Positions 12,883-25,550 of a stretch of 31,229 bases of DNA are shown piece after piece (the stretch's first letter is position 1; every line of letters begins with the position of its first letter). Source of the DNA: a virus; IMG/VR virus record IMGVR_UViG_3300032116_000893, positions 1 through 31,229 of that record; one strand, 5' to 3'. The position numbers were made by a program, and so were the translations under genes. Under the pieces are notes generated by a model. That model was not told where the DNA came from. It searched no databases and saw only the letters and a program-made list of their open reading frames with translations.

Positions 12883-13500
12883 ATGAAAAAATTACCAGCA
12901 ACCGAATTTTTCAATGATATTGATTATGTCAGTATAATTGATACAATAAAGGGCATTTACACTAGTGACGGGTCAATGTCAACCCTTCTTGATTTTGAAC
13001 GTGTTTTAGATGAAGCAGACCTTTATGCTTTTAAAAATTGGGATTTAGGGGAACTTGTAGACGGCCCTGATATCAAAAAATATACAGTAACATGTATATT
13101 CATGTACCCAGAAAAACTGATGCCAGATCCTAGAGGTGGTAAAAGACTCATAGGAATAGGTTGCATGGTCCATTTTAAGAGAACAGAAATTGAAATACCC
13201 ATAAAAATAGAAGATCCTAATGATTTTCAAGCGGGTACACATTATCCAAAAATGATTAAGAGAAAAGTTTGGCTTGTTCGTATTGAGATGCCAAAGCAAC
13301 TTATGAATGAAATACGTGAAGGATCAATTGATCTTGCGGATCAGACAATTGATTTAGATGAATTAGACGAAGCATACGAACAGGATTATGATCAGGATGC
13401 AAAACAAGATGATCAGTTAAATCAGGATATGGGTGGCATGGGAGGACCTATGCCGGGAGCAGCTCCGATGCCTGGCCCAATGCCAGGAGCACCAGTATGA
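12883..13500 (+). CDS. Conserved phage protein with Met/Pro/Gly tail
   Basis: A 205-aa protein, function not known; I recall relatives in T4-like marine phages. Residues about 1-145 look like a compact alpha/beta domain (KYTVTCIFMYPEKLMPDPRG, then IEIPIKIEDPNDF). An acidic Asp/Gln-rich linker follows (about 150-182), then a low-complexity tail of Met, Pro, Gly and Ala (GGMGGPMPGAAPMPGPMPG). The tail is probably disordered. It is preceded by two late promoter motifs and its stop overlaps the next start (ATGA at 13497), so the pair is likely co-expressed late and may act together, possibly in virion assembly. Confidence 0.75.
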   Translation: MKKLPATEFFNDIDYVSIIDTIKGIYTSDGSMSTLLDFERVLDEADLYAFKNWDLGELVDGPDIKKYTVTCIFMYPEKLMPDPRGGKRLIGIGCMVHFKRTEIEIPIKIEDPNDFQAGTHYPKMIKRKVWLVRIEMPKQLMNEIREGSIDLADQTIDLDELDEAYEQDYDQDAKQDDQLNQDMGGMGGPMPGAAPMPGPMPGAPV

Positions 13501-14033
13501 ACCAATTAAACGAAGGTCTAGATTACAAAGATTTTGTGAGACAAATATTTCCTGTACTTTCTATCGATGAGTACGAAGCCAAAACAGGATCTGATGATGA
13601 AACTGTAACTCTCGCTTTTACTGTAAAGGGCAAACAAGCCAGTGAAGATTTGGCAAGTTGGTTTGAAAAAGGATATGATTTTGTAATAGATGCACAAGTC
13701 AGTAAGGGTGAAGTAAGAAGAGGAAAACATGTAGTGTTTGTTGAAATGGAGCGTAGATCAAAAGTTCCAGAAAGAATTATCGAAATTCTTGAAGATTTAG
13801 AAACACTTACGAATCTTGAAATGTCTGATTGGACAATCGAAGTTAATGACACCGAAATTGAAGCAGATATTGACCAATTAAAAGCAAACATTTTATTATC
13901 TCCACATTTATACAGAGAATCAAAAGAAACAGAACTAAATGAAATGCGTGAATTATCTGGAATAGAACCACATAAAATTTATAACGAACAAGACAAAGAA
14001 TTAAAGAATTTTAAAGCAATGGCAGGATTATAA
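13497..14033 (+). CDS. Conserved phage protein, probably virion or assembly related
   Basis: A 178-aa protein coupled by ATGA to the previous gene. It starts MNQLNEGLDYKDFVRQIFP, then has SIDEYEAKTG, a beta region (VTLAFTVKGKQASEDLASWF) and an EMERRSKVPERIIEILEDLE helix. I recall this family from T4-like marine phages as a conserved hypothetical. The beginning contains LNE followed by G, a weak match to a T4 gp21-type cleavage site. The C-terminus is charged and helical. Function unknown; the late promoters upstream favour a late role. Confidence 0.75.
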   Translation: MNQLNEGLDYKDFVRQIFPVLSIDEYEAKTGSDDETVTLAFTVKGKQASEDLASWFEKGYDFVIDAQVSKGEVRRGKHVVFVEMERRSKVPERIIEILEDLETLTNLEMSDWTIEVNDTEIEADIDQLKANILLSPHLYRESKETELNEMRELSGIEPHKIYNEQDKELKNFKAMAGL

Positions 14034-14042
14034 GGTATAATT

Positions 14043-14357
14043 ATGGACGCACAGTTTTTTAGAAAATATTTAGACATCCTCAGCGAAAGAGTTGTCGTAG
14101 GACCAGACGGTAAACCTCAGCCAAGAAAAGTTTCTGATGAGCCTGTTGAACCTGGAGTTCAACTTACAGGACCTGAACCTACTGATGATGAAATGGCAGA
14201 TGCTGAGGAGAAACAAAGAGCAGCACTTGGATTACCTAGTAAGAAAGCCGACGATGAAGCAACATATCAGCGTCAGTTAAAAGCCTATAAAGCAGGCGAC
14301 AATCGTGCTGCTGGTCCTTTTTTCAAACCAAGACCGGGCGACGAGATAAAAAAATGA
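14043..14357 (+). CDS. Small Pro/Glu/Asp-rich phage protein
   Basis: A 104-aa protein, function not known. The N-terminal 15 residues (MDAQFFRKYLDILSE) form a likely amphipathic helix ending in a leucine-x-glutamate, like the capsid-targeting peptides of T4 internal proteins. The rest (GPDGKPQPRKVSDEPVEPG onward) is charged, low in hydrophobics and probably disordered. It overlaps the next gene by 4 bases (ATGA). A purine-poor AAGGTATAATT precedes the ATG with AAGG as the Shine-Dalgarno. Confidence 0.7.
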   Translation: MDAQFFRKYLDILSERVVVGPDGKPQPRKVSDEPVEPGVQLTGPEPTDDEMADAEEKQRAALGLPSKKADDEATYQRQLKAYKAGDNRAAGPFFKPRPGDEIKK

Positions 14358-14773
14358 GAATACACGAATTCGTAACCGAAGCAGAAGATAAGCTTACACC
14401 TTATCCTAACATGCCAGACAAAGAAGAACCATGGAAAGGGTCAGATGAACCTAAAAAAACACTTAGGTCACCTGAAGAACTTGATGCAGCGATAAAGGAT
14501 CTTACACCAGATTTACTACCGGTGACTCCTGACGAGGGAGATGATAGACTTGTTGCTTATACTACACCAAAACAGGCACGAAATATTGCACAAAACCCTG
14601 ATGCTTACCGTTACGGCACCGACATAAGAAAAGATACTGAGTATAATCGTCCCCTTGTCAATCGTAAACAACCGTATCTAGCACCAAGAGGCTACAGTGA
14701 TTTTTCTAAACCTGAAGGAATGGATACTGATATTAATCGTATGCCTTCCTACCCAAAGAAATATGATATTTAG
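14354..14773 (+). CDS. Small charged phage protein with capsid-targeting-like N-terminus
   Basis: A 139-aa protein, function not known. It begins MRIHEFVTEAEDK, which closely resembles the T4 capsid-targeting sequence (MKTYQEFIAE, cut before A by the gp21 protease): the predicted cut would be FVTE|A. The remainder is rich in Pro, Asp, Lys and Tyr and looks disordered, as T4 internal proteins are small and charged. It is coupled to the preceding gene and lies in a block with late promoters and the holin. An internal (capsid-packaged) protein is a reasonable guess, not shown. Confidence 0.7.
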   Translation: MRIHEFVTEAEDKLTPYPNMPDKEEPWKGSDEPKKTLRSPEELDAAIKDLTPDLLPVTPDEGDDRLVAYTTPKQARNIAQNPDAYRYGTDIRKDTEYNRPLVNRKQPYLAPRGYSDFSKPEGMDTDINRMPSYPKKYDI

Positions 14774-19115: not shown

Positions 19116-19123
19116 GATAAATA
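19116..19123 (+). promoter_or_regulatory. T4-type late promoter core GATAAATA
   Basis: TTTTTTGATAAATACT here is identical over 16 bases to the sequence at 24318-24333. It lies 22 bases before the 55-aa gene and is the apparent promoter of the block that includes the nucleotidyltransferase cluster. Confidence 0.8.
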
Positions 19124-19651: not shown

Positions 19652-20395
19652 ATGACTACTAAAATGTTCTTTGAAGGTGGCAATGTAGTACCTGATGCCA
19701 AACCAATCACACGCAAAAATGTTCAGACTGTAGTTAAAAATCTACAAGGAATAATGCCTAAGGGTATTAATGTTTATCCTATAGGTAGTGCAGGTAAAAA
19801 AGATGTAAGCAGCGATATGGATGTTCTTATTGACGCAGCAGAATTAATGAAAATCTTTCCAGTAAAAGATTTAAAAACAGCAAGACAGGGTTTAGAGAAT
19901 TACTTCAAAGAAAATGGATACTTTGCTGCACGTACTGGAGTAAGTGTGCATGTTGGTATACCTACAGGTGAAGGCGGTGATGTAACACAAGTAGACATTA
20001 TGGCTGTAGAAAACGCAAGAGATGTAGTACCATTACATACACATGATTACAGCAAAGACGCTACTATGAAAGGTGGCACATTACATGGTATATGGGCTGA
20101 TTTAACTAACATGAGTTCATTACCAGAACATCCTAGCTTAATGATGAGTCCATACAAAGGATTAGTGGATCGTCAAACTAAAGAATTGATTACAAGCAAC
20201 AAAGACAAGATAGCAAAAATAATTATTGGACCTGAAGCAAGTGCTGAAGATATGGGTAGCGTACATTCTATTCTAGCAGCATTGAGAAGTAATCCAGAGA
20301 AATATAAAGCCATCAAAGATAAATGGGCACCTAACATTGAGATGAATGAAGATGTCCGTAGTTGGTTTAGATACACATTGAATTTATTAAAATGA
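19652..20395 (+). CDS. Pol-beta superfamily nucleotidyltransferase
   Basis: A 247-aa protein with the minimal nucleotidyltransferase signature: GS at 45-46, then SSDMDVLID with D55 and D57 as metal ligands, and the third acid D115 in QVDIM. Such enzymes transfer NMP to RNA, proteins, sugars or antibiotics; the substrate is not deducible. The N-terminus MTTKMFFEGGNVVPDA contains MFFE|G, resembling the hydrophobic-x-E cleavage site of T4 capsid-targeting peptides. The remainder (PLHTHDYSKDATMKGGTLHG) is a family-specific region. It shares a 4-base ATGA overlap with the next gene, itself a nucleotidyl-transfer enzyme, so the two are made together. Confidence 0.82.
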   Translation: MTTKMFFEGGNVVPDAKPITRKNVQTVVKNLQGIMPKGINVYPIGSAGKKDVSSDMDVLIDAAELMKIFPVKDLKTARQGLENYFKENGYFAARTGVSVHVGIPTGEGGDVTQVDIMAVENARDVVPLHTHDYSKDATMKGGTLHGIWADLTNMSSLPEHPSLMMSPYKGLVDRQTKELITSNKDKIAKIIIGPEASAEDMGSVHSILAALRSNPEKYKAIKDKWAPNIEMNEDVRSWFRYTLNLLK

Positions 20396-21519
20396 AAATA
20401 CAATCATTACTAGAAGCTGCAGGACAAGTAGGTCGCAAGTATCAACATGTTGAGGATCTAGTAATAGCCAACGGTAGCAATGGTGGATTACATGCAGTAG
20501 AACGTATGCGTGACATGGCACAAAATTATGGCACTATAGAATTAAAATGGGATGGTATGCCTGTTGTGTATTGGGGTCGTGATGATAATGGTACATTCTA
20601 TATGATACCTAAAAATGCATGGCAATATTTAAAATCAGGCACAATGCAAACTAAAGCAGGTGCATCTACACTAACTAAAAGTCCACAAGATGTAATGAAT
20701 TTTATATTAGGTACAGGCGGCGAAGCAGATGCTAGTCGTATGCAATTTGCAAAACAGTTTGCAAGTTTGTGGCCTTATTTTGAACAAATAAGTCCAGTAC
20801 GAGGTTTTATAGAAGGTGGATTACTTTTTTATCCTGGTGCACCACCAGTATTAAATCAAAAAACAAACACATATGATTTTAAACCTAACATAACAACTTT
20901 TCATGTACCTGCAGACAGTGAATTAGGTAAGCGTATTGCGAACGCTAAAGTTATGGTTGCTGCTACTGGATATTATGATCAAATTGGAAGTGCTGAGGAA
21001 AAAAGATATGAAGATGCAGATCAACTTTCAACACAAGAAGTAATTGTTCAAGGTACAACATATGCTGAATCAATGCCGGGAGTAGACACAACTGGATTAG
21101 ATAGACTTGAGCAATTCATAAGCACTAATGCACAAAAAATAGATAACTTTTTAGCACCAAAGCCAGGAATGAATAATCCAGGCGGAGAGTTATATAATTA
21201 TCTAAATCAACATTTAAGAACATCAGGTTTAGTTAGAGATTTTCCAAATTGGGCACAGAACAATTTGAGTGCAAAGAAAGCACAAACAATGCTATCAGAT
21301 AAAGCTGGTTACGAAGCAACATTGGGTGCAGTAGAAGCATTGACTAATGAAAAAATGAAAATAATACAGTCATTGAGTTTAGGATTGCATGGTGGTATAA
21401 TGCAAACTAAACCAGAAGGCTATGCACAAGCACATCCTGAAATTAATTTCAAGTATGCATTGCCCGGACAGTTTTTAAAATTAATAGACCAACTTAATTG
21501 GCAACCGAGAAAATTATGA
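20392..21519 (+). CDS. Ligase/nucleotidyltransferase-fold protein (DUF6267-like)
   Basis: A 375-aa protein. IELKWDGMPVVYWG at 49-62 resembles motif I (KxDG) of the ATP-dependent ligase/capping enzyme superfamily, with K52 as the would-be adenylated lysine. RGFIEGGLLFY at 137-147 resembles motif III/IIIa. Together these suggest adenylate or nucleotide transfer. I think it belongs to the phage family annotated DUF6267, but could not check. No OB-fold or DNA-binding domain is evident. The N-terminus MKIQSLLEAAGQV fits the capsid-targeting pattern (SLLE|A). It is coupled by ATGA to genes on both sides, both nucleotidyltransferases of other folds, implying one pathway. Confidence 0.72.
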   Translation: MKIQSLLEAAGQVGRKYQHVEDLVIANGSNGGLHAVERMRDMAQNYGTIELKWDGMPVVYWGRDDNGTFYMIPKNAWQYLKSGTMQTKAGASTLTKSPQDVMNFILGTGGEADASRMQFAKQFASLWPYFEQISPVRGFIEGGLLFYPGAPPVLNQKTNTYDFKPNITTFHVPADSELGKRIANAKVMVAATGYYDQIGSAEEKRYEDADQLSTQEVIVQGTTYAESMPGVDTTGLDRLEQFISTNAQKIDNFLAPKPGMNNPGGELYNYLNQHLRTSGLVRDFPNWAQNNLSAKKAQTMLSDKAGYEATLGAVEALTNEKMKIIQSLSLGLHGGIMQTKPEGYAQAHPEINFKYALPGQFLKLIDQLNWQPRKL

Positions 21520-23285
21520 CACAAAGAAATCAAGGCAAAACAGCAGTAGTGGGATGGGGTCGTGGTATGGGCCATAAAGGACATATGCTATTAGCCAGCG
21601 CAGTTATACATCAAGCAAAAGCCATTAATGCTACACCTATTTTTATTTTAAGTAGAACAAGTTTAATAGATCCTAGTACTGGAGATTTATGGGCTGATAC
21701 TAAAAAAGTCAGAGCAACAAAAGATGATCCATTGACACCACAAGAAAAACTAGCAATCTATCAAAAAACATTCCCTGATAATGCAAAAATATTTACAGTA
21801 GCAGATGGTGAATCTGGGTCATTAAATGACGCATTGGCTAATTTAGCCAAACAGGGTTTTAGTAATATTGTTTTAGTTGTTGGTGCAGATCAGAAAGCAG
21901 CATTTCAATATCTAGTCAATCCAAGCAAAGATGGTTCTATACCTTATCAACAAATGGGTCTACAAAATCTATCTGTAATGAGTAGACAAGAAACACAAGC
22001 ACCTGGTAGTGACATAGAGGGGCCAAGGGCAACTCCTATGCGTCAGGTTCTTTTAGATCCTAAAATTAGTAACGAACAAAAGTTTGCAGTATGGCGAGAT
22101 GCTATGCCAGACGCACTAAGTGATAAGGAAGTGTTAGGTTTGATGAGAAAAGCGCAGCAACGTTTGGGTAGGGCAGAACAGGTTGCACCACCTAAACAAC
22201 AAAAAATTAAAGAGTTTATACAACGTGTTCGCCCTATGCTGAAAGAAGCTAGTGTTGAAAAGAAATTAGAAGTTTTAAAATTTATTAAAGAAGCAATATC
22301 TACTAAAAACAAACCAAAAAAATATAAAGTTGAAGTAACTTTTGTAGATGGTAAAAAAGATTACGTAGAGATAGAACATACCGGTGAAGAACTTAGTTCT
22401 ATTGCAAAATTAGCAAGTACACACCAACTAGTAAAAGACAAATTTCCCGACAAAGAGATTCGTTCTATTATGGATCCTTCAATAGAAGAAGATAGGTTTG
22501 ATAATCAAAAAGAAACTGTGAGATTGCCTCCCGAAATGACCGGGCGTGATCCCTCAAAGCCATATGCAGATATAGGACCTTACACCATATCAATGCGAGG
22601 TGATGATGCCACCACACAACAAGATGCACGACATTTAGGTACAATTTTATCAAGTGTCCCTAATCCATTAACTAAAGCAGCTGGTATGGCCATGCGATAT
22701 GCTGGGCAATATGACAAACTACCCACAGGTGAAAAAGTTGCTAGGGCAATAGATAGTGCTGGAACTCCTGACGAAATTAGTAGATATCTAAAAAAGAAGG
22801 CAGTAAAAGAACAAGGCAAAAAAATGAATCCTTTAAATAAACGATTTGAGCCTGAGGTTCCAAATGATGCAGAACTTGATTATCAAGGGTCCGAACGCGG
22901 TCGCTTTCCGCACTACTACGAGATCAGAGACGACGGCGCGGCTTTTGAATTAGAATTAGAGAATGGCAAAAAATATACTGTAGAGCCCGGACATCCTGAA
23001 TGGGACACACTGTACAAACAACATTTTGATTTGCCAACTCCTAATGATGAAGTTGATTGGTATATTGGTAATAATCCCCTAGTTGAAATAGATGACCCAT
23101 ATAATTTACCTAATCGCCACAGCATGGACTATGGAATGCGCAAGACAATGATCCGACGTTTAGCTAAAGCTACAGATTATGATGTAAGTGATTTAAGTCT
23201 AGCAAGCGATGAGGAATTATCTGATTTATACAAAGAGGTATTCCCAGATGATTCAATAAACGAAGATTATCTAGACGAAAAATAA
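21516..23285 (+). CDS. Cytidylyltransferase-like protein with long C-terminal extension
   Basis: A 589-aa protein. The first ~215 residues are a nucleotidylyltransferase (HxGH superfamily) domain: VVGWGRGMGHKGH with HKGH at 20-23, LSRTS at 45-49, LTPQEKLAIYQKTFP at 73-87, VVGADQ at 121-126, and GPRATPMR at 169-176 in the place of the ISxTxxR motif. These enzymes join NTP to a phosphate (as in NMN or pantetheine adenylylation). The C-terminal ~370 residues are charged and unrecognised, with a small beta motif (YKVEVTFVDGKKDYVEIEH). The ATG at 21516, overlapping the previous stop (ATGA), is preferred to the in-frame TTG at 21498. The C-terminus is acidic. Confidence 0.82.
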   Translation: MTQRNQGKTAVVGWGRGMGHKGHMLLASAVIHQAKAINATPIFILSRTSLIDPSTGDLWADTKKVRATKDDPLTPQEKLAIYQKTFPDNAKIFTVADGESGSLNDALANLAKQGFSNIVLVVGADQKAAFQYLVNPSKDGSIPYQQMGLQNLSVMSRQETQAPGSDIEGPRATPMRQVLLDPKISNEQKFAVWRDAMPDALSDKEVLGLMRKAQQRLGRAEQVAPPKQQKIKEFIQRVRPMLKEASVEKKLEVLKFIKEAISTKNKPKKYKVEVTFVDGKKDYVEIEHTGEELSSIAKLASTHQLVKDKFPDKEIRSIMDPSIEEDRFDNQKETVRLPPEMTGRDPSKPYADIGPYTISMRGDDATTQQDARHLGTILSSVPNPLTKAAGMAMRYAGQYDKLPTGEKVARAIDSAGTPDEISRYLKKKAVKEQGKKMNPLNKRFEPEVPNDAELDYQGSERGRFPHYYEIRDDGAAFELELENGKKYTVEPGHPEWDTLYKQHFDLPTPNDEVDWYIGNNPLVEIDDPYNLPNRHSMDYGMRKTMIRRLAKATDYDVSDLSLASDEELSDLYKEVFPDDSINEDYLDEK

Positions 23286-24335: not shown

Positions 24336-25550
24336 ATGAACCTCAAGGAACTAGCTAGTTTTAAACTGCATGATGCAGTGTTTTTTCATGACCAATTAAA
24401 TCAAAAGATTTTTTTGGGGGATAAGATGCGCCCTGAAGTAAAAAATCAACTACTAATAATAGCAGAAGATTTTATAGATCATTTAGGGATTCCTCATTTA
24501 GAGATAGAAGATGTTACACTGTCTGGCTCAAATGCAGCGTATACATATACCAAACATAGTGATATAGACTTACATATTTTAGTAGATATGAGTAAATTAA
24601 ATGACGATCTAATTTATAGAGAATTATTTGATGCCAAAAAAACAATTTATAATGACACACATAATATAAAAATTGGCGGGTATGACGTTGAATTATATGT
24701 TCAGGACTCAAATCAACCAGTAGTTAGCTTAGGTGAATATTCTGTAGTCAATGATAATTGGCTACGACTACCTAAAAAGCATCGTAGTAATTTAGATCAA
24801 TCAGCAACCAAATTAAAATTTAATAAATTAGCTCATTTAGCAGAATTAGCAGTAAAGCATGAGGATGAAAAAAGAATAAAAACTCTGCTTAAAACAATTA
24901 AGAAATATAGACAAGCTGGACTTGACATACATGGTGAATTTGGGCCTGAAAATCTAGCGTTTAAAGCATTAAGATCAAAGGGTATCATTGGAAAATTATA
25001 TGATAAGCTTAATCAACTGCACAGCGAGAAATTAAGTTTACCTGAGAATAATACTTACATTACTGACGAAGATTATGATCCAAATGGGCCTCCACCAGGA
25101 CCAGAGTTTAAGCCTACAATGCCAAAGGGCACTGTTAAAGTAGACGTAAGTGATGTGTACGATTGGTATAAGTTAGGTCAACATATTAGCAATCTTGATG
25201 GATTAGGTAAGCATGACTTCGGTAAAGGTCCACCTAGCACTATTTTTTCATTTGGTAGTGAAGAAGCGGAACACAAGTATATAAAGAATTTAGAAAAGAC
25301 TGGATTGACCACAACGGACATTGATCCAGTTGATCCTAATCAACCTAAGGGTATGAAACGTCAGAAAACTGACCCAACATACAATGTAAATGAAGTTAGT
25401 GGATATATTCCCAGCAAAAAAGAAAAGAACGACCCTAGATTTAAAACAGCCTTAACTGTGGATATTACTCCTAATAGTATTAAGGACAATGCTAGGAAAT
25501 TAGGAAGTAAAGTAAGTAGGGCAGGCATACCTCCCCTTTTAAGACCATAA
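24336..25550 (+). CDS. Pol-beta superfamily nucleotidyltransferase with C-terminal module
   Basis: A 404-aa protein. The nucleotidyltransferase core has SGSNAAYTYTKHSDIDLHIL at 63-82, with metal ligands D76 and D78, and YDVELYVQD at 116-124 with E119 as the third acid. A helical middle part (about 135-240) follows. The C-terminal part contains VSDVYDWYKLGQHISNL, GKGPPSTIFSFGSEEAE, and a terminal RAGIPPLLRP, a module I recall on several marine phage proteins. The start is uncertain: the ATG at 24336 is almost on the promoter; the ATG at 24426 (Met31) has GGGGGA 5 bases upstream. I keep 24336 because LNQKIFLGDKMRPEV looks like conserved family sequence. Substrate unknown. Confidence 0.8.
   Translation: MNLKELASFKLHDAVFFHDQLNQKIFLGDKMRPEVKNQLLIIAEDFIDHLGIPHLEIEDVTLSGSNAAYTYTKHSDIDLHILVDMSKLNDDLIYRELFDAKKTIYNDTHNIKIGGYDVELYVQDSNQPVVSLGEYSVVNDNWLRLPKKHRSNLDQSATKLKFNKLAHLAELAVKHEDEKRIKTLLKTIKKYRQAGLDIHGEFGPENLAFKALRSKGIIGKLYDKLNQLHSEKLSLPENNTYITDEDYDPNGPPPGPEFKPTMPKGTVKVDVSDVYDWYKLGQHISNLDGLGKHDFGKGPPSTIFSFGSEEAEHKYIKNLEKTGLTTTDIDPVDPNQPKGMKRQKTDPTYNVNEVSGYIPSKKEKNDPRFKTALTVDITPNSIKDNARKLGSKVSRAGIPPLLRP

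What the first reader, a model, noticed from the sequence alone, without database searches (positions are those of the whole stretch)
19652..21519. Nucleotidyl-transfer enzymes that may be packaged in the capsid and injected
Seen: the 19652 protein starts MTTKMFFE|GG and the 20392 protein starts MKIQSLLE|AA. Known: T4 internal head proteins carry ~10-residue capsid-targeting sequences (MKTYQEFIAE|A in IPs, MELITELFDE in Alt) cut by gp21 protease after hydrophobic-x-E; Alt is an ADP-ribosyltransferase injected with the DNA. Inference: this late-promoter-led block may encode injected enzymes that nucleotidylate host proteins, RNA or metabolites, a possible Alt analogue of different chemistry.
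Basis: partly seen in the sequence, partly recalled or inferred. Interest (0 to 1): 0.75.

Follow-up and report, generated by a model that had tools for sequence, protein, structure and literature searches.

The report
Capsid-tagged nucleotidyltransferase cassette in giant phage
A giant freshwater phage encodes a row of different nucleotide-transferring enzymes, at least one with the kind of detachable address tag that phage T4 uses to load proteins into its head and send them into the host with the DNA; related enzymes have been found in purified particles of related phages.

Summary
For P2 (DUF6267) the evidence supports a T4-type capsid-targeting leader. All leader-bearing P2 relatives keep L/I-x-E just before the domain while the leader varies. 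Most cyanophage P2s lack the leader and start at the domain. Where P1, P2 and P3 are fused, the targeting half is gone but hydrophobic-x-E|A/D remains at every junction. Near-complete relatives encode gp21 and gp23.

Independent support: the cyanophage P3 relative (cytidylyltransferase, T4-GC190) was found by mass spectrometry in S-SM1 and S-CREM2 virions and starts MKKFSAFLNE|A and MKNFSSFLTE|A. In all of S-CREM2, four genes carry the strict 10-residue leader; all four were in the virion. A relative of the window's second Pol-beta NTase (24336) was too.

P1 has a Pol-beta/X NTase fold, P2 ligase-type covalent NTase motifs, P3 an HxGH nucleotidylyltransferase domain.

Unproven: P1's leader is not CTS-like (F-F-E), and this phage's P3 has none. 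Cleavage, injection and substrates are untested. Virion cytidylyltransferases, and their possible injection, are already published; the capsid tag, the three-enzyme cassette and the fusions appear new.

The parts
19116..19123 (+). GATAAATA, late-promoter-like element heading the operon
   Evidence: ATAAATA found upstream of 8 of 29 gene starts vs 0.5 expected; T4 consensus TATAAATA itself is absent
19652..19675 (+). P1 leader codons 1-8, MTTKMFFE; E8-G9-G10-N11 invariant in 19 homologues; weak as a capsid tag
   Evidence: AF2 pLDDT under 50 exactly for residues 1-8
19652..20395 (+). P1: Pol-beta/X-type nucleotidyltransferase (G45-S46, D55xD57, D115)
   Evidence: Foldseek vs PDB: Pol mu/lambda/beta, E about 1e-5, prob 1.0; invariant residues; no Pfam match
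20392..20415 (+). P2 leader codons 1-8, MKIQSLLE, predicted capsid-targeting sequence with gp21-type site LLE|A
   Evidence: L/I-x-E kept in all leader-bearing P2 homologues while the rest of the leader varies; low pLDDT for residues 1-17
20392..21519 (+). P2: DUF6267, ligase-like covalent nucleotidyltransferase (K52 in KWDG)
   Evidence: PF19782 E=9e-16; invariant KWDG, PEGY/F and a C-terminal Lys; best structural matches mostly DNA/RNA ligases, Z 4-5
21516..23285 (+). P3: HxGH nucleotidylyltransferase domain (residues about 1-245) plus variable C-terminal region; no leader in this phage, leader present in other lineages
   Evidence: PHROG 3041 cytidyltransferase E=1.2e-13; leader-bearing homologues MRLRQLFE|N, MFLRNIFE|A; cyanophage relative is a virion protein
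24336..25550 (+). Second Pol-beta-type NTase (phrog_36119 family), just downstream
   Evidence: phrog_36119 E=2.4e-42; 34% identical to S-N03 NTase, which is 80.5% identical to S-CREM2 gp156, a virion protein
14354..14773 (+). Small protein starting MRIHEFVTE|AEDK, a further candidate tagged cargo protein
   Evidence: leader scan
13497..14033 (+). Head/packaging-type protein (phrog_13138) starting MNQLNE|GLDY; relatives MTRRIINE|GLDY, MKQILVE|GFDY

Best explanation
This is a late operon of nucleotidyl-transfer enzymes that a T4-related giant phage uses as head cargo. P2 (and, in other lineages, P3 or a P1-P2 fusion) carries a short N-terminal capsid-targeting leader of the T4 internal-protein kind. 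The leader should draw the protein into the prohead core; the gp21 protease then cuts after L/I-x-E, frees the enzyme, and it is ejected with the DNA. P1 and leaderless P3 would enter with P2 as partners, or in some lineages as parts of one polyprotein cut at the retained junction sites. Shown: leader and site conservation, fusions with retained sites, gp21/gp23 in close relatives, enzyme folds or motifs, and virion presence of P3-family and 24336-family relatives in other phages. Inferred: packaging, cleavage and ejection in this phage. Guessed: that the early action is on host RNA or protein, or on a nucleotide cofactor such as NAD.
For: Leader-bearing P2 homologues all have L/I-x-E followed by A, D or Q, though leaders range from MKIQSLLE to MKFSDILTE, MRLRQLFE, MKIRELIIE and MRAREFILKE. 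Most cyanophage P2s without a leader begin at the domain (MKNTHLEHLEDD, MPNKHLEHPED). Eight distinct fusion junctions all keep [LIV]-x-E|[AD], against 3.8% of random 12-mers. gp21 (E about 1e-29), gp23 and DUF6267 occur together in six near-complete relatives. S-SM1 and S-CREM2 cytidylyltransferases, both found in virions by MS, begin MKKFSAFLNE|A and MKNFSSFLTE|A. The strict 10-residue leader picks four S-CREM2 genes and all four are virion proteins; the looser M[KR] form gives 7 of 10 virion proteins vs 45 of 176 without it (P=0.0056). Folds: P1 Pol X, P2 ligase-like, P3.
Against: No virion data exist for this lineage. P1's leader is not CTS-like. P3 of this phage has no leader, and some isolate P2s lack one. 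The strict 10-mer was defined after seeing the S-CREM2 hits; the first pattern tried there, hydrophobic-x-E|A/G/S/T/N, showed no association (2 of 9, P=0.77). S-CREM2's authors note that CsCl carry-over could explain non-structural proteins in virions. The P2 fold match is weak (Z 5 or less).
Confidence: 0.66

Rival explanations
1. Ordinary late or middle enzymes made and used in the infected cell (nucleotide or NAD metabolism, nucleic-acid repair). The N-termini are unstructured extensions that resemble gp21 sites by chance.
For: The bare motif hydrophobic-x-E is common. P1's short leader and this phage's leaderless P3 fit it, and in cyanophages the genes lie among replication and nucleotide genes.
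Against: Site kept while the leader varies and across fusions. Relatives are found in virions and carry textbook leaders.
Confidence: 0.2
2. The proteins are structural or assembly proteins of the head or neck (a core/scaffold function), with degenerate enzyme domains, rather than injected enzymes.
For: T4 core proteins also carry gp21 sites (PMC9026906); the head/packaging-type gene 13497 lies in the same stretch with a similar start.
Against: Catalytic residues are invariant: P1 D55/D57/D115 and P2 KWDG plus PEG.
Confidence: 0.08
3. A narrower version of the best explanation: P2 (and P3 in other lineages) is tagged and packaged, but P1 is not itself tagged. P1's E|GGN belongs to the enzyme and its few variable first residues have no targeting role.
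For: E8-G9-G10-N11 is invariant in all 19 P1 homologues and the preceding 3-7 residues vary freely. P1 lacks L/I at the P3 position in this phage.
Against: In P1-P2 fusions P1 starts MFLRELFHRPQRPLLE|GGN, a CTS-like 16-mer. AF2 confidence is under 50 exactly up to E8.
Confidence: 0.45

Closest known systems
T4 internal head proteins IPI-III and Alt (capsid-targeting sequence, gp21 processing)
   Same: Short N-terminal leader ending in a gp21-type L/I-x-E site; gp21 and gp23 in close relatives; enzyme cargo as in Alt (PMC9026906)
   Different: Enzymes are Pol-X, ligase-like and HxGH nucleotidyltransferases, not an ADP-ribosyltransferase; leader is 8-9 residues in this lineage; packaging not demonstrated
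Cyanophage virion cytidylyltransferase T4-GC190 (S-SM1, S-CREM2)
   Same: Relative of P3, next to DUF6267 (T4-GC71) in several cyanophages, found in virions and starting with a CTS
   Different: The passages read do not mention the leader; in this window's phage P3 has no leader and P2 has one
DUF6267 (PF19782)
   Same: P2 is a member (E=9e-16)
   Different: Family has no assigned function; here it shows ligase-type NTase motifs and a capsid leader
phiKZ/SPN3US ejection proteins cut by a gp21-related protease
   Same: Large cargo of propeptide-bearing proteins in a giant phage head (PMC9026906, PMC5694885)
   Different: Different phage lineage and proteins; no homology tested

Membership tests
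T4-type CTS-bearing internal head protein (P2) | N-terminal leader of about 7-19 residues ending in L/I-x-E | tested here: met
   MKIQSLLE|A; L/I-x-E in all leader-bearing homologues
T4-type CTS-bearing internal head protein (P1) | N-terminal leader of about 7-19 residues ending in L/I-x-E | tested here: not met
   MTTKMFFE has F at the P3 position; homologous leaders shrink to 4-5 residues
T4-type CTS-bearing internal head protein (P3 of this window) | N-terminal leader | tested here: not met
   Starts MTQRNQGKTAVVGWG directly at the domain; leader present only in other lineages
T4-type CTS-bearing internal head protein | gp21-type prohead protease in the genome | tested here: met
   Met in six near-complete relatives with clamp loader 75-78% identical; the window's own record is a 31-kb fragment, so not testable there
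T4-type CTS-bearing internal head protein | Present in the virion | not testable with these tools
   No proteomics for this phage; P3-family and 24336-family relatives are virion proteins in S-SM1 and S-CREM2
T4-type CTS-bearing internal head protein | Cleaved after the leader and ejected into the host | not testable with these tools
   Needs N-terminal proteomics and an ejection assay
Pol-beta/X nucleotidyltransferase (P1) | NTase fold with G-S and three metal-binding Asp | tested here: met
Covalent nucleotidyltransferase / polynucleotide ligase superfamily (P2) | KxDG motif and further motifs III-V | tested here: met
   KWDG, EGGLL/QGDLL, PEGY/F and KLVD-type C-terminal Lys conserved to cyanophage homologues
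Covalent nucleotidyltransferase / polynucleotide ligase superfamily (P2) | Ligase NTase fold | tested here: inconclusive
   Ligases dominate the structural list but only at Z 4-5, Foldseek E about 1, no sequence match in PDB
HxGH nucleotidylyltransferase (P3) | HxGH signature and family match | tested here: met
   GHKGH; PHROG cytidyltransferase E=1.2e-13; aligned with T4-GC190; exact substrate class unresolved
Alt ADP-ribosyltransferase | ADP-ribosyltransferase domain | tested here: not met
   No such Pfam or PHROG match for P1-P3; P1 is a Pol-X fold

The most novel reading that the evidence does not exclude
T4-related giant phages load a ready-made nucleotidyl-transfer kit (Pol-X NTase, ligase-like NTase, HxGH nucleotidylyltransferase) into the head through exchangeable capsid tags, in some lineages as one polyprotein cut into separate enzymes by the prohead protease, and inject it to act before any phage gene is expressed.
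Probability: 0.4. Interest if true: 0.82.

Novelty: new variant of a known kind. Interest (0 to 1): 0.62.

Why it matters
It suggests a readable sequence rule (an M[KR]...hydrophobic-x-E leader) for which phage enzymes travel inside the head. In one phage with a published virion proteome the strict form of the rule picked only virion proteins. That makes the injected proteome of many uncultured T4-like phages predictable and testable, assigns a likely chemistry and location to DUF6267, and would explain why cytidylyltransferases keep turning up in cyanophage particles. If the fusions are cut by gp21, they would be a case of the prohead protease maturing an injected polyprotein of enzymes.

Tried and rejected
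TATAAATA late promoters: none in the window. gp21/gp23 in the fragments carrying the closest homologues: none, because they are partial; found in near-complete relatives instead. The bare hydrophobic-x-E motif as a genome-wide marker: only about 2-fold enriched and 5 of 72 families, too weak alone. Hydrophobic-x-E with A/G/S/T/N after the cut as a predictor of S-CREM2 virion proteins: no association (P=0.77); the M[KR] leader form did associate, and the strict 10-mer was written after seeing those hits, so its 4-of-4 is post hoc. Close DNA relatives among isolated phages: none. P1 homologues in isolated phages: none. Sequence match of DUF6267 to solved structures: none. Exact substrate of P3: only weak adenylyl/cytidylyltransferase matches for its cyanophage relatives. 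Literature on DUF6267: none held; the only held paper with both 'capsid targeting' and 'cyanophage' is the T4 head review.

Full report
What was checked. P1 (19652-20395), P2 (20392-21519) and P3 (21516-23285) overlap by stop/start codons and form one operon. ATAAATA/GATAAATA elements are enriched upstream of genes in the window, and one at 19116-19123 heads this block, so 'late-promoter-led' is plausible, although the T4 form TATAAATA is absent.

Chance. Five of 32 window genes have hydrophobic-x-E|A/G within residues 2-13 against 0.81 expected. The bare motif is weak in related genomes. The fuller leader shape M[KR]x(1-5)-two hydrophobics-(x)-E is enriched at starts over internal methionines (odds ratio 5.7, P=7e-8), and stays enriched when position 2 is fixed as K/R (P=1.7e-7).

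The phage group. The window's own record is a 31-kb fragment. Its clamp loader is 75-78% identical to those of near-complete contigs of 230-367 kb. Six of these carry gp21 (Peptidase_S77, E about 1e-29), gp23 and DUF6267. Their gp23 has a candidate site of the form LLAE|SS about 42 residues in; Melnitz has FLSE|AA and S-CREM2 LLTE|AP. The nearest isolates with P2/P3 are Kyanoviridae: Melnitz, HTVC008M and cyanophages.

Leaders across homologues. P2 leaders include MKIQSLLE, MRISALLE, MKILSLLE, MRITALLE, MKFSDILTE, MKPSDFLTE, MRLRQLFE, MKIRELIIE and MRAREFILKE. All end L/I-x-E, and the next residue is A in this lineage, with D or Q in some distant ones. Several isolate P2s have no leader and begin at the domain (DSL-LC02, P-SSM4, P-HM1). 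P3 has no leader in this window, but MRLRQLFE|N, MFLRNIFE|A or MRLRELLQE|D in other lineages. So the leader behaves as an exchangeable module. P1 is different: E|GGN is invariant, but what precedes it shrinks to MLNE or MKLFE and is F-F-E here. P1 is therefore not counted as a demonstrated CTS protein.

Fusions. P1 and P2 are one ORF in several independent contigs (L015, L016, L018, L019, L021/L022), P2 and P3 in L111, and all three in L137 (901 aa). The targeting half of the leader is gone at each junction, while HLQE|AAP, PLLE|AAP, QLQE|AGP, QINE|AAD, VLRE|DAG and VVNE|AKK remain (3.8% of random 12-mers have such a site). Fusion by loss of a stop codon would bring a leader along; the informative point is that only the cutting triad survives. 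The contigs are related, so these are perhaps three or four independent events.

Enzyme identity. P1: AF2 model (pLDDT 87) matches Pol mu/lambda/beta (E about 1e-5, prob 1.0), with invariant G45-S46, D55, D57 and D115. P2: DUF6267 with invariant KWDG and PEGY/F plus a C-terminal Lys; ligases dominate the structural matches at low Z. P3: HxGH (GHKGH) nucleotidylyltransferase, PHROG cytidyltransferase. A further Pol-beta NTase lies at 24336.

Virion evidence from other phages. Sullivan et al. (PMC3037559) found the putative citidylyltransferase T4-GC190 in purified S-SM1 virions; that protein begins MKKFSAFLNE|AERSF. In S-CREM2 (PMC10665884) the cytidylyltransferase gp154 (MKNFSSFLTE|A) is in the virion; so is gp156, a Pol-beta NTase 80.5% identical to the S-N03 protein that is 34% identical to the window's 24336 protein. 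A six-frame scan of S-CREM2 for the strict 10-residue leader gave four genes (SAM hydrolase gp6, gp13, APH-like kinase gp14, cytidylyltransferase gp154), all in the published virion list. This strict pattern was written after a looser one had been tried (7 of 10 leader-bearing proteins in virions vs 45 of 176 others, P=0.0056) and after one pattern had failed; it is strong but post hoc. The authors caution that CsCl carry-over is possible.

Mechanism. Most likely, P2 (or P3, or a fusion) enters the prohead core through its leader, gp21 cuts after L/I-x-E, and the enzymes leave with the DNA. Whether P1 and leaderless P3 ride along as partners is a guess. The substrate is unknown: nucleic-acid end repair (Pol-X plus ligase-like enzyme), modification of host RNA or protein, or replenishment of a nucleotide cofactor are all open.

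Verdict. The packaging inference is well supported for P2 and its family by conservation and by virion data on relatives, unproven in this phage, and doubtful for P1. The idea that virion cytidylyltransferases enter the host is already published; the capsid-tag link, the DUF6267 assignment and the tagged or fused three-enzyme cassette were not found in the held literature.

Noticed in passing
S-CREM2 gp12, record OR473000 7704-10313 minus (L218): A virion protein annotated as Cas9 has RFASFMAE|AAVDQ near its N-terminus, a CTS-like leader; its annotated start may lie too far upstream. A capsid-tagged nuclease in a cyanophage head deserves its own look.
   Followed up: partly
window 24336-25550: Second Pol-beta-type NTase; homologues start M-x-[LF]-x-E-L with E5 kept (MNLKEL, MDLKEL, MHFREL). 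S-CREM2 relative gp156 is a virion protein.
   Followed up: partly
window 13497-14033: Head/packaging-type family (phrog_13138) with a variable short start and kept x-E|G before LDY/FDY (MNQLNE|GLDY, MTRRIINE|GLDY, MKQILVE|GFDY).
   Followed up: partly
window, whole: TATAAATA is absent (0 vs 4.6 expected) while GATAAATA/ATAAATA is enriched upstream of genes, suggesting a modified late-promoter consensus.
   Followed up: partly
L036:2230-12809 and L039:6434-19367: Right after clpB, many unrelated genes in a row start with MKIxELFE/MRLRxLFE/MKIRELLE-type leaders, like a cargo cluster of the phage head.
   Followed up: partly
L018/L051, within the P1-P2 fusion: About 85 extra residues (LEENDFEQDPNFAKYSELMAKYDML...) are inserted between P1 and P2, and the junction still ends HLQE|AAP.
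   Followed up: no
window 22250-23285: The C-terminal 330 or so residues of P3 are variable between lineages, and two gp21-like sites (PMLKE|AS, KFIKE|AI) lie just after the enzyme domain.
   Followed up: no
Melnitz L055:12203-19275: Neighbours of its DUF6267 gene also carry leaders (MQGFKTFLSE|A, MKKFSELTSELIE|RK, MKKFSEIIE|A), so the cargo cluster may extend beyond the three enzymes.
   Followed up: no
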